DNA from: Natrialba magadii ATCC 43099
GTDB lineage: Archaea; Halobacteriota; Halobacteria; Halobacteriales; Natrialbaceae
Assembly: GCF_000025625.1 (NCBI RefSeq)
Contig: NC_013922.1
Location: 2,728,001-2,792,000 of the forward strand
Length of the DNA: 64,000 bases
Direction: 5' to 3'
Made by a program: the position numbers and the translations under genes
The notes under the pieces: model-generated
Seen by the model: only the letters and a program-made list of their open reading frames with translations
Told to the model about the DNA's origin: nothing
The model's database searches: none
Part shown: piece by piece, positions 23,378-44,976 of the stretch
Numbering within the stretch: the first letter of the stretch is position 1
Layout of the letters: every line of letters starts with the position of its first letter

Positions 23378-24940
23378 TTAGCCCAGGATCGCGATGGAGT
23401 TCTGGTCGTCGTTATCGTCGTCCATCCCATCGTCATCGTTCATCTCATCGTCGTCGTCCATCTCGTCATCGTCCATCTCGTCATCGTCCATCTCGTCATC
23501 GTCCATCTCGTCATCGTCGGTCACGTCCTCGAGGTCGGACGCGTCACCGAGCGTGACGGTTTCTGCGGTTGCGTCACCGATCGAAATCGAGGATGCGCTC
23601 GCGTGCGAGACGGTCTCCTCATCGTTCATGTCGTTTTCGTCGTCAGCGACATCGTTCTCGTCATCTGCGTCATCCTCGTGGTTTTCGTCGTCGACGCCGT
23701 TATCGTCATCGGCCATCTCGTCGTCCTCGTCATCGACGCCGTTTTCGTCGTCATCGACGCCGTTGTCCTCATCGTCGACACCGTTGTCTTCGTCATCTAC
23801 TTCGGTGTCGTCGGTCTCGTCATCGTCGGCTTCCTCGAGTGACTCGACCGTCATCGAGTCGATGGTGACCTCGTCAACATCGAACTGCTCGATGGTCAGG
23901 TGCTCGAGTTCCTCACCGTTTGCGTCGTCTTCGTCGTCAACGACGCCATCGTCATTCTCTTCGTTTTCGTCGTCGACGCCGTTATCGTCGTCAGCGGCGT
24001 CGTCGTCAGCGGCGTCGTCGTCAGCGGCATCGTCGTTATCATCGACGCCGTTGTCCTCGTCATCTGCCTCGTCGTTCTCGTCGTCATCGTTGAAGAGGCC
24101 CTCGAAGAAGTCACCGACCTGGTCGAGGATACCGTCGTCATCCTCGATCTCCAGGTTGTCGATCGTCATCTCATCGACATCCATGGTCTCGATGGTGAGT
24201 TCGTGGACGGTTAGCTCGTCAGCGTCCTCATCGAAGAGGTCGAACTCGTCGTCAGTGGCCTCGTCGTCGTCAGCCATGTCGTCGTTGTCATCGACGCCGT
24301 TGTCGTCATTGTCGACACCGTTGTCCTCATCGTCCGCGTTGGTGTCGTCGTTGTCGTCGACGCCGTTGTCAGCGTCATCGTTTTCGTCGTCGACGCCGTT
24401 CTCGTCGTCGGCGTCAGCCTCGTCGTCCATTTCCGCATCATCCATCTCATCGTCATCGAGTTCGAGGTCCTCGATCGAGACGTCCTCGAGTTCGAGGTGC
24501 TCGATCTCGATGTCAGAGATCATGACGGACTCAGCGTCGTCATTGTCGTCGACGCCGTTGTCAGCGTCATCGACACCGTTGTCAGTATCGTCCGCGTTGG
24601 CGTCGTCGTTGTCATCGACGCCGTTCTCGTCGTCAGCGACGTCGTCGTTATCGTCGACGCCGTTGTCCTCGTCATCTGCTTCGTCGTTATCGTCCAGTTC
24701 CTCTTCAAGCTCCTCGTCGTCAACGTCGAACTGGTCGACGTTCAGTTCCTCGATAGTGGCGTTCTCGATCGTGACGTTGTCAAGATCGAGTGTGTCTACC
24801 TGTACGTCCTCGAGTGTTGCGCTCATGTCTCCGGTGTCGTCTGCGGCAGGTGCTGTCGCGCCTGCGAGGGCAGGACCCCCCGAGAGGGCGACCAGCAGTG
24901 CAACGAAGACGACTCCGATCTGTTGTGGTCGTGAAACCAT
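23378..24940 (-). CDS. Large exported acidic repeat protein, copy 1
   Basis: ATG 24940 (MVSRPQQIGVVFVALLVALS) is chosen because it aligns with the start of the paralogue at 28106; the protein has about 520 residues. A signal peptide ends near ALAGA. The mature chain alternates two element types. One is a run of five-residue strands such as VTIENATIEELNVDQFDVDD, resembling pentapeptide beta-helix coils with Ile/Val at the centre. The other is long acidic linkers built from DEDNGVDDNDD-like units. At least five strand blocks are seen. No anchor such as PGF-CTERM is visible; the end is NSIAILG. Possible roles are cation binding, adhesion or surface coating; none is demonstrated. Confidence 0.75.
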   Translation of the reverse strand: MVSRPQQIGVVFVALLVALSGGPALAGATAPAADDTGDMSATLEDVQVDTLDLDNVTIENATIEELNVDQFDVDDEELEEELDDNDEADDEDNGVDDNDDVADDENGVDDNDDANADDTDNGVDDADNGVDDNDDAESVMISDIEIEHLELEDVSIEDLELDDDEMDDAEMDDEADADDENGVDDENDDADNGVDDNDDTNADDEDNGVDNDDNGVDDNDDMADDDEATDDEFDLFDEDADELTVHELTIETMDVDEMTIDNLEIEDDDGILDQVGDFFEGLFNDDDENDEADDEDNGVDDNDDAADDDAADDDAADDDNGVDDENEENDDGVVDDEDDANGEELEHLTIEQFDVDEVTIDSMTVESLEEADDDETDDTEVDDEDNGVDDEDNGVDDDENGVDDEDDEMADDDNGVDDENHEDDADDENDVADDENDMNDEETVSHASASSISIGDATAETVTLGDASDLEDVTDDDEMDDDEMDDDEMDDDEMDDDDEMNDDDGMDDDNDDQNSIAILG

Positions 24941-25050
24941 GCGGACTGACATACCCCCTACTATTGGCTAAAACGAGCCGACTGTTACAGGCTTATCGCA
25001 GCGAAAAGTCCAGTTAGAATTCGTGCAAGAGTCGCTAATCACTCGTTCAT
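24941..25050 (-). promoter_or_regulatory. Promoter region of acidic protein copy 1, conserved with copy 2
   Basis: Blocks such as ggctaaaac-agc-gactgtt and gttagaa----tgcaa--gtcgctaat are shared with the region upstream of copy 2 (28107-28215). On the minus strand GTTTTAGCC lies about 30 bases before the ATG in both genes and may serve as the TATA-like element. Conservation beyond the coding sequence suggests duplication of the whole unit and similar regulation. Confidence 0.55.
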
Positions 25051-25284: not shown

Positions 25285-25370
25285 CTATAGTAGCCACTGC
25301 AAGTCACTGCACACCTGATCGCCAGCCTGCTCGGCGATCAGTGTGTAACTAGTTGCAGTTGTTACTATAG
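25285..25370 (+). repeat. 86-bp hairpin repeat, copy A
   Basis: It begins CTATAGTAGCCACTGCAAG and ends GTTGTTACTATAG, so the two halves are imperfect inverted copies that can fold into a long hairpin with a short loop around GCCTGCTC. The reverse complement occurs at 44891-44976 with only about two differences over 86 bases. No open frame is present. This looks like a small non-autonomous mobile or palindromic repeat. Confidence 0.85.
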
Positions 25371-25658
25371 AGCCGGCAAGGGGTGTGGATCAGAACGACA
25401 GAACTCGAGGCTGCAAGGAGAGGAGTCACTGCGAGCCACTGTGCACCTGATCGCACGACAGTGGTGTGAACAGTGTGTGAATAGGGGCAATTGGGACTAG
25501 CGCACGGACGGGCTGCTCGGATAGGGGAACGGACACTGTCCGAGGATTGCAGTCCAAAAATAGAATCGCCGACAACTGGCCGGCGGGTCGACCGGGAAGC
25601 GGTCGGTGCCGGTCGTCTGGCTGGACCGCCTCTCGTCTCGGTTTCGCCTTAGTTCGCG

Positions 25659-28106
25659 TTAGACGGCGAGTGCGTACTCTTCGTCGTTGTCGTCGTAGTC
25701 GTTGTCGTCGTAGTCGTTGTCGTCGTAGTCGTTGTCGTCGTAGTCGTCATCCTCGGCATCGTCGAGTTCGTCATCGTACTCGTCCTCGGCTCCGGTTATC
25801 TCGCCAACCGAGATGCTGTCGGCAGTCGCGTCACCGACGGTGATCGACGAGACGTAGAGTGATTCGATGGTCATCTCGTCGGTATCGGTATCGTCGATGC
25901 CGTTGTCATCGACGGCGGTTTCGTCGTCCTCGACACCGTTGTCGTCTACGTCAGCGTCGCCAGTATCGTCGACACCGTTGTCTTCGATTCCGTTGTCGTC
26001 GTACTCGTCGTCAGCGTCAACGGCGTTCTCCGCGTGGTCGTCTTCCTCAGCGTAGTCGTCGTCAACGTGTTCGTCCTGTTTGTCGTCGTACTCGTCATCG
26101 TGGGCGGCTTTGTCATCGTACTCGCCATCGTGGGCAGCTTTGTCATCGTACTCGTCATCGTGGGCAGCTTTGTCGTCCTTGTCCGCGTGCTCGTCGTCAG
26201 CCTCATCGACGTTGCACTCGGTCACTGCCTCGTCATCATCGTCGACAGCAACGTCGTTCTCGTCAGTTTCATACTCGTCGTCAGTCTCGTCGGGTGCAGC
26301 TTCCTCGTCAGGTTCGTCGAGTTCATCGTCGACTTCGACGCCATCATGCATCTCGTCGATGGCGCTGACGCTCATCGATTCGACGGTGAGTTCGTCGACG
26401 GTGAACTGCTGGATCGTGAGCTGGCTGATTTCGTGGACGGCTTCCTCGGTGTCTTCGACACCGTTGTCCTCGTACTCGTCGTCAGCGTCGTCAACGCCGT
26501 TGTCCTCGTACTCGTCGTCAGCATCGTCGATACCGTTCTCGTCAGTTTCGTATTCGTCGTTAGCGTCGTCGGTTTCGACACCGTCATCCATCTCGTCATC
26601 CATGGCGCTGACGGTCATCGATTCGACGGTGAGTTCAGTGGTGGTGAACTGCTGGATCGTGAGGTGGCCGATTTCGTGGACCGTTTCCTCGGTGTCTTCG
26701 ACACCGTTGTCGTCTACTTCAGTGTCGTCGGTATCGTCGACGTCGTTGTCTTCGACACCGTTGTCATCGTACTCGTCGGCATCGTCGACACCGTTCTCGT
26801 CGAGGTCGTCATCTTCGTACTCGTCGTCGGCATCGTCAACGCCGTTCTCGTCGAGGTCGTCGTCAACGCCGTCCTCGTCATCCGCTGCACCGCAACAGGC
26901 ACCGGTGTGTTCCTCGTCGTCAGTTGCCTCCTCATCGTCGACCATCTCGTCGTCCTCGTCGACCATCTCGTCATCCGCATCGATGGCAGTCTCGTCGTCA
27001 TCCATCATGTCATCATCGTCTGCCATCTCATCGTCGTCGACCAGCTCGTCATCCTCATCATCCGCCAGTTCGTCGTCCGCTTCTTCGTCGACACCGTCAT
27101 CCAGCTCGTCATCGGCCATCTCGTCTTCGACGACGAGTTCGTCGATGGTGAGCTGTGCAACGGTCATCGATTCGATGGTGAGTTCCTGGACGGTTAGTTC
27201 GTCAGCGTCCTCGTCGAAGAGGTCGTGGTCGTCGGCGTCATCGACGCCGTTCTCGTCGAGTTCGTCATCTTCGTACTCGTCGTCAGCGTCGTCAACACCG
27301 TTGTCTTCGACGCCATTGTCCTCGTACTCGTCGGCAGCGTCGACACCGTTCTCGTCGAGTTCGTCATCTTCGTACTCGTCGTCGGCATCGTCAACGCCGT
27401 TCTCGTCGAGTTCATCGTCGTCGACGGCCTCATCCTCGTCGACAACGATGTCCTCATCTGCCTCGTCCTCGACATCCTCATCCATCATCTCGTCCTCGAG
27501 TTCAACGTCCTCGATGGAGACGTCAGTCAGAACGAGCTGGTCGATCTGGATGTCGGAGATGGTGACGTGGTCCATCTCGTCAGCGTCGTCGACACCGTTC
27601 TCGTCTACCTCGTCGGTGTCCTCAACGCCGTTCTCGTCGTATTCGTCGTCCTCGACACCATTGTCTTCGACGCCATTGTCGTCGTATTCATCATCAGCAA
27701 CGCCGTTATCCTCGTACTCGTCATCAGCGTCGTCGACACCGTTCTCGTCGAGTTCGTCATCAGCGTCGTCAACGCCAGTCTCATCATCGAGCCCGTCAGC
27801 ATCAGCCGCATCGTCATCTACACCGGGCTCGTCGGCGTCTACATGCTCATCGTCAAGCAACGCATGCAGTTGCTCGTCGTCAACGTCGAACTGTTCGATG
27901 GTCAACTCCTCGATCGTCGCCTCCTCTACCGTAACCTCATCTAACTCGAGTGTGCCTACCTGTGCGTTCTCGACCGTCGCGCCCATGTCTCCGTCCTCAG
28001 TGTCGTCTGCGGCTGGTCCCGATCCGCCAGCGAGGGCAGGACCCCCCGACAGCGCGACCAGGAGCGCCACGAAGACAACACCGAGTTGCTGTGATCGTGA
28101 AACCAT
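25659..28106 (-). CDS. Large exported acidic repeat protein, copy 2
   Basis: This encodes 815 residues starting MVSRSQQLGVVFVALLVALS, nearly identical to the copy 1 signal peptide. It has the same alternation as copy 1: five-residue strand blocks (VTVEEATIEELTIEQFDVDD, LTVQELTIESMTVAQLTIDE) between acidic linkers, here richer in DEYDDNGVEDNGVED and ADDEYEDNGVDD. A central GACCGAA is one of the few places with Cys. A KAAHDDEYDD unit is repeated three times near residue 680. The C-terminus repeats DYDDN and ends EEYALAV. It is a tandem paralogue of copy 1, same strand, separated by the hairpin-bearing spacer. Probably exported and cation-rich; the function is unknown. Confidence 0.75.
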   Translation of the reverse strand: MVSRSQQLGVVFVALLVALSGGPALAGGSGPAADDTEDGDMGATVENAQVGTLELDEVTVEEATIEELTIEQFDVDDEQLHALLDDEHVDADEPGVDDDAADADGLDDETGVDDADDELDENGVDDADDEYEDNGVADDEYDDNGVEDNGVEDDEYDENGVEDTDEVDENGVDDADEMDHVTISDIQIDQLVLTDVSIEDVELEDEMMDEDVEDEADEDIVVDEDEAVDDDELDENGVDDADDEYEDDELDENGVDAADEYEDNGVEDNGVDDADDEYEDDELDENGVDDADDHDLFDEDADELTVQELTIESMTVAQLTIDELVVEDEMADDELDDGVDEEADDELADDEDDELVDDDEMADDDDMMDDDETAIDADDEMVDEDDEMVDDEEATDDEEHTGACCGAADDEDGVDDDLDENGVDDADDEYEDDDLDENGVDDADEYDDNGVEDNDVDDTDDTEVDDNGVEDTEETVHEIGHLTIQQFTTTELTVESMTVSAMDDEMDDGVETDDANDEYETDENGIDDADDEYEDNGVDDADDEYEDNGVEDTEEAVHEISQLTIQQFTVDELTVESMSVSAIDEMHDGVEVDDELDEPDEEAAPDETDDEYETDENDVAVDDDDEAVTECNVDEADDEHADKDDKAAHDDEYDDKAAHDGEYDDKAAHDDEYDDKQDEHVDDDYAEEDDHAENAVDADDEYDDNGIEDNGVDDTGDADVDDNGVEDDETAVDDNGIDDTDTDEMTIESLYVSSITVGDATADSISVGEITGAEDEYDDELDDAEDDDYDDNDYDDNDYDDNDYDDNDEEYALAV

Positions 28107-44890: not shown

Positions 44891-44976
44891 CTATAGTAAC
44901 AACTGCAACTCGTTACACACTGATCGCCGAGCAGGCTGGCGATCAGGTGTGCAGTGACTTGCAGTGGCTACTATAC
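44891..44976 (-). repeat. 86-bp hairpin repeat, copy B
   Basis: It begins CTATAGTAACAACTGCAACT and ends GCAGTGGCTACTATAC. Its reverse complement matches copy A (25285-25370) at all but about two positions. It sits about 55 bases before the luciferase-like gene and so may affect its promoter. The central part GATCGCCGAGCAGGCTGGCG forms the hairpin tip. Confidence 0.85.

What the first reader, a model, noticed from the sequence alone, without database searches (positions are those of the whole stretch)
25285..25370. 86-bp hairpin element present twice in inverted orientation
25285-25370 and the reverse complement of 44891-44976 match at all but about two of 86 positions, although 19.5 kb apart. 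Each copy is an imperfect palindrome ending in CTATAGTA. It has no coding capacity and resembles a MITE or REP-like element. One copy lies between the paralogous acidic genes, the other just before a monooxygenase gene where it could affect expression.
Basis: seen in the sequence. Interest (0 to 1): 0.7.

Follow-up and report, generated by a model that had tools for sequence, protein, structure and literature searches.

The report
IS630-linked hairpin MITE of haloarchaea
The paired 86-base hairpins are two copies of a small non-coding jumping element that is scattered through this salt-loving archaeon and its relatives and is probably moved by the enzyme of a common insertion sequence, so it is a new example of a known kind of genomic parasite.

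Summary
The repeat is an 84-bp element, TATAGTAGCC...GTTACTATA (80 bp plus a duplicated TA), at 25286-25369 (+) and 44892-44975 (-), with one internal mismatch. It is not a two-copy curiosity: at least 79 ungapped copies lie in the stretches I fetched from this genome, and it occurs in 110 of 391 sampled genomes of the class (27 of 86 genera). It inserts at TA with a TA duplication. An empty site in a same-genus genome shows the single TA, and 40 of 67 copies with intact ends sit in CTAG. A two-ORF, 1059-bp IS630-family insertion sequence in the same genome shares the TATAGTA ends, the CTAG preference and the TA duplication, and has itself landed in the CTAG inside this element. Best reading: a MITE mobilised in trans by that IS630, the haloarchaeal counterpart of pneumococcal RUP/IS630-Spn1. 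It is not a REP, a PATE or an Rfam RNA. Arm-to-arm compensatory changes across genera and minisatellite-filled long forms are the unusual parts. New member of a known kind; transposition and any effect on the flanking genes were not shown.

The parts
25286..25369 (+). Copy 1 of the MITE (TATA...TATA; inner 80 bp 25288-25367 plus TA on each side), flanked by C and G (CTAG target)
   Evidence: same-genus genome G162 has no element here
44892..44975 (-). Copy 2 of the MITE; read along the window's plus strand the target was CTAC
   Evidence: empty site with a single TA in same-genus genome G338
25418..25501 (+). Decayed older copy of the same family, 48 bp from copy 1
   Evidence: 57 of 84 matches, CM 34.7 bits E 2.5e-6; related sequence at the same place in G162
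25349..25352 (.). Internal CTAG in the right arm of copy 1, the site used by nested IS630 copies elsewhere in the genome
   Evidence: CTAG positions; nested insertions

Best explanation
A non-autonomous IS630-type miniature inverted-repeat element. Its ends (TATAGTAGCC.../TATAGTAACA...) are recognised by the transposase of a resident group of IS630-family insertion sequences (1059 bp, two ORFs joined by a probable programmed frameshift). The transposase cuts the element out and pastes it at TA, preferably within CTAG, duplicating TA. Shown from sequence: copy number, exact ends, TA duplication, CTAG preference, empty sites, shared ends with the IS, and IS copies nested in the MITE's own CTAG. 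Inferred: that this transposase moves it, and the cut-and-paste steps. Unknown: any effect on neighbouring genes.
For: End motif 105 forward and 97 reverse hits in the own genome against 1 and 2 for the reversed-pattern control. 79 ungapped copies in the fetched own-genome stretches, including 8 groups of identical copies, the largest of 7. Empty site in G338 with a single TA. CTAG target in 40 of 67 own copies with intact ends, expected fraction 0.08, p 5e-27, and in 48 of 80 copies with intact ends in other species' contigs. IS630 confirmed by NF033545 and PF13358. 23 of 30 delimited IS copies also sit in CTAG. MITE left end vs IS left-end consensus 20 of 30, p 5e-6 by shuffling, and 13 of 23 outside TATAGTA, p 5e-4. 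Other IS630 groups in the family have different ends. Three of 30 IS copies lie in a MITE at its internal CTAG; taking the IS out of L061 in the script gives a perfect 84 of 84 MITE.
Against: Beyond TATAGTA the right ends match only 10 of 23 (p 0.06), and the match is not clearly left/right specific: MITE right vs IS left is 19 of 30, against 17 of 30 for right vs right. The IS end sets in that call held a few misassigned or duplicate rows. No autonomous element with the full MITE end was found. 57 of 110 MITE-bearing genomes had no IS630 of this kind at E 1e-20, including a single-contig genome with many copies, although its ends are mostly mutated (G044: 18 of 72 ends exact). The co-occurrence statistic (53/57/73/208, p 4e-5) is not corrected for phylogeny.
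Confidence: 0.85

Rival explanations
1. The MITE is mobilised by a different, unseen transposase with TA targets; IS630 group A shares only the short TATAGTA tip by common descent or convergence.
For: 57 of 110 MITE genomes lack a group-A IS630 at the cut used; subterminal similarity is modest at the right end.
Against: No end pair with IS-like spacing carrying both MITE ends in the own genome apart from the nested IS630s or in G044. Same CTAG preference as group A. In G044, without IS630, the ends are decaying.
Confidence: 0.15
2. The hairpin has been kept as a functional RNA or DNA structure (processing signal, terminator, protein-binding site) and spread is secondary.
For: 94.7% of cells paired and 63 double-changed cells against 24.6 in shuffles over 50 distinct sequences; fixed 84-bp length in different haloarchaeal families; 33 of 36 annotated plasmid records have no gene under the best match.
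Against: Matching arms are also expected if one transposase must bind both ends, or from hairpin-templated repair. Sites are not conserved between same-genus genomes. No Rfam match. In seven annotated neighbourhoods gene orientations are mixed.
Confidence: 0.12
3. A REP-like palindrome moved by a Y1 (RAYT/IS200-type) transposase.
For: Palindromic, intergenic, multicopy, and contains GTAG near one end.
Against: TA duplication at the empty site and inverted ends at both termini. Only one Y1_Tnp gene in the genome, and its best 84-bp neighbour scores 35 of 84, against 33 in a reversed control.
Confidence: 0.02

Closest known systems
RUP (repeat unit of pneumococcus) with IS630-Spn1
   Same: About 107 bp, roughly 110 copies per genome, ends like a resident IS630, target duplication, hairpin-forming, proposed trans-mobilisation (PMC3049150, passages read)
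   Different: Bacterial, AT-rich; here an archaeal host, 84 bp, mainly CTAG targets, spread over 27 sampled genera, with minisatellite-expanded forms. Sequence homology with RUP was not tested.
IS630 of Shigella and ISY100
   Same: TA target duplication; the title of a paper cited in PMC2170065 reports preference for TA in CTAG (reference list and passages)
   Different: Autonomous elements with a transposase
MITEs and SMRs of Haloquadratum walsbyi
   Same: Non-coding haloarchaeal elements with terminal inverted repeats; MITEs there are linked to IS only through their terminal bases (PMC3119063, passages read)
   Different: IS630 does not occur in that paper's main text. The sequences of those families were not compared here.
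BrickBuilt MITE of Porphyromonas gingivalis
   Same: A MITE with an internal minisatellite (PMC4596501, abstract read)
   Different: Bacterial, 23-nt unit; here most copies are the 84-bp form and only 9 long forms were seen among the fetched stretches

Membership tests
MITE | Short, non-coding, terminal inverted repeats | tested here: met
   84 bp, pairing arms
MITE | Many interspersed copies | tested here: met
   At least 79 copies on three contigs
MITE | Target-site duplication, shown by an empty site | tested here: met
   TA duplicated; G338 empty site
MITE | Ends related to a resident autonomous element | tested here: met
   IS630 group A: TATAGTA plus partial subterminal similarity
MITE | Mobilisation in trans observed | not testable with these tools
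   Needs an experiment
IS630-mobilised element | TA insertion with CTAG preference as in the IS itself | tested here: met
   40 of 67 MITE copies with intact ends, 23 of 30 delimited IS copies
RUP | Sequence homology to RUP | not tested
   Compared in architecture only
REP/RAYT palindrome | No target duplication; linked Y1 transposase | tested here: not met
   TA duplication; one Y1_Tnp gene without a similar palindrome nearby
PATE (IS605-type) | No terminal inverted repeats, no target duplication | tested here: not met
   Both are present here; definition from PMC3119063 passages
Known structured RNA family | Rfam match | tested here: not met
   0 matches at gathering cut-offs over the window

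The most novel reading that the evidence does not exclude
The element and its IS630 are a coupled system built on the rare CTAG word. Both insert at CTAG, which is strongly under-represented (29 in the window against about 73 expected) and is 4mC-methylated by an orphan methyltransferase in Haloferax, with homologues in many haloarchaea (PMC5867850 passages). Most MITE copies carry a fresh CTAG (50 of 79) into which IS630 copies insert, so the MITE serves as a portable landing pad. The hairpin arms are kept matched by compensatory change because the folded form matters for mobility or for the host. CTAG methylation would then control where transposition goes.
Probability: 0.12. Interest if true: 0.65.

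Novelty: new member of a known kind. Interest (0 to 1): 0.35.

Why it matters
It adds a widespread non-autonomous element with a clear candidate driver to the poorly described archaeal MITEs, gives a marker of recent transposition in Natrialbaceae and Haloarculaceae genomes, and offers a natural test of whether CTAG avoidance and methylation shape transposition.

Tried and rejected
Tried: an autonomous element with the full MITE ends. Two wide end pairs (916 and 940 bp, L028 and L029) turned out to be chance three-mismatch ends beside ordinary copies. Other IS630 groups (ends TAGTGATTAAGG, TAGGGATCAGCAG, TAGTACCGTCCCAA) were rejected as drivers. Viral spread: no match in the phage records or in an exact-pattern scan of viral contigs. 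The composite MITE+IS630 moving as one unit was considered and not favoured: L061 and L064 hold different MITE subfamilies, so they look like independent landings. Papers: eight searches showed no description of this element in the listings. One with IS630, haloarchaea and MITE together found 0 papers. Subscription papers and ISfinder were not available.

Full report
Observation. The exact unit is 84 bp, TATAGTAGCC...GTTACTATA, at 25286-25369 (+) and 44892-44975 (-), differing at one position. It folds into a long imperfect hairpin (RNA -44.2 kcal/mol, z -8.3). A covariance model built from 51 copies finds both, plus a decayed third copy at 25418-25501.

Family size. A 17-base end motif with up to two mismatches hits the genome 105 times forward and 97 times reverse, against 1 and 2 for the reversed pattern. 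In the fetched stretches I counted 79 ungapped 84-bp copies: 53 on the 3.75-Mb contig (14 per Mb), 16 and 10 on two smaller contigs (42 and 39 per Mb). There are 8 groups of identical copies, one of seven, which suggests recent spread (inference). Among 391 genomes sampled from the class, 110 have a match, in 27 of 86 genera. No phage record and no viral contig by exact pattern matched.

Insertion anatomy. In same-genus genome G338 the site of copy 2 is empty and holds one TA where the window has TA on both sides of the 80-bp core. In G162 the site of copy 1 has no element, while the decayed neighbour copy is present in related form. Of 67 own copies with TATA at both ends, 40 have C before and G after, so the target was CTAG (expected fraction 0.08, p 5e-27). 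In the 120 loci of other species, 110 held an 84-bp copy, 80 of those had intact ends, and 48 of the 80 were in CTAG. CTAG itself is rare in the window: 29 against about 73 expected from trinucleotides.

Driver. The genome holds four full IS630-family insertion sequences of 1059 bp (L061-L064). The two ORFs of L061 match NF033545 and PF13358, and in all four copies the frames meet at a conserved AAAAAAAGC run, a likely frameshift signal (inference). Their ends begin TATAGTA, as do those of the MITE. Left end against left end matches 20 of 30 (p 5e-6), and 13 of 23 outside the shared tip (p 5e-4). Right ends match 17 of 30, but only 10 of 23 outside the tip (p 0.06), and cross comparisons score 18 and 19 of 30, so left/right specificity is not shown. 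Other IS630 groups of the family have different ends. With the IS left out and the flanks joined in the script, 23 of 30 delimited group-A copies sit in CTAG, and three sit inside a MITE at its internal CTAG; in L061 the joined MITE is 84 of 84. MITE and IS630 presence are associated over 391 genomes (53 both, 57 MITE only, 73 IS only, 208 neither; p 4e-5, not corrected for phylogeny). G044, with no PF13358 match, has only 18 of 72 exact ends, against at least 100 of 202 in the own genome with a slightly stricter pattern. That fits decay without a driver.

Structure. Over 50 distinct sequences 94.7% of cells in 32 pairs are paired, with 63 double-changed cells against 24.6 in shuffles and at most 8 in slid versions. 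Shuffles do not control for relatedness. The changes mean the two arms evolve together. One transposase needing both ends alike could cause this, and so could selection on a folded form. Nine long forms (124 to 560 bp) carry tandem repeats in the loop, and one 50-bp form lacks the inner stem.

Context. Of 41 plasmid records with a match, 36 carry annotation and 33 of those have no gene under the best match. In seven neighbourhoods read, gene orientations are mixed. Any effect on the monooxygenase gene 56 bp past copy 2 is untested.

Known relatives. It works like pneumococcal RUP with IS630-Spn1 (PMC3049150, passages). TA duplication is standard for IS630 (PMC2170065, passages), and CTAG preference is in the title of a paper in that reference list. 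I found no description of this element in the listings of eight searches of the open library. It is best filed as a new IS630-type MITE family, a new member of a known kind.

Noticed in passing
window 25418-25501: Decayed third copy of the element, 48 bp from copy 1; a related sequence sits at the same place in same-genus genome G162.
   Followed up: yes
L041, L042, L043, L052, L057, L226, L230, L231, L245: Long forms of the element (124 to 560 bp) whose hairpin loop is filled with tandem repeats of GC-rich units.
   Followed up: partly
L228 729-778: A 50-bp form with the inner stem and loop missing but both ends intact.
   Followed up: no
L061-L064: IS630 copies whose two ORFs overlap at a conserved AAAAAAAGC run, a likely programmed frameshift site.
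   Followed up: partly
L252 1501-1505: In a Natronorubrum bangense plasmid an annotated gene ends within the first 5 bases of a copy, so the element may supply its stop codon.
   Followed up: no
G262:C97:11986-12162, G162:C43:79851-80029, G162:C12:22624-22803: Pairs of copies in the same orientation a few bases apart, suggesting insertion next to an existing copy.
   Followed up: no
window 23378-24952 (-) and 25659-28106 (-): Two paralogous, highly acidic repeat proteins (DDNGVDD-type units) with signal-like starts and no Pfam match.
   Followed up: no
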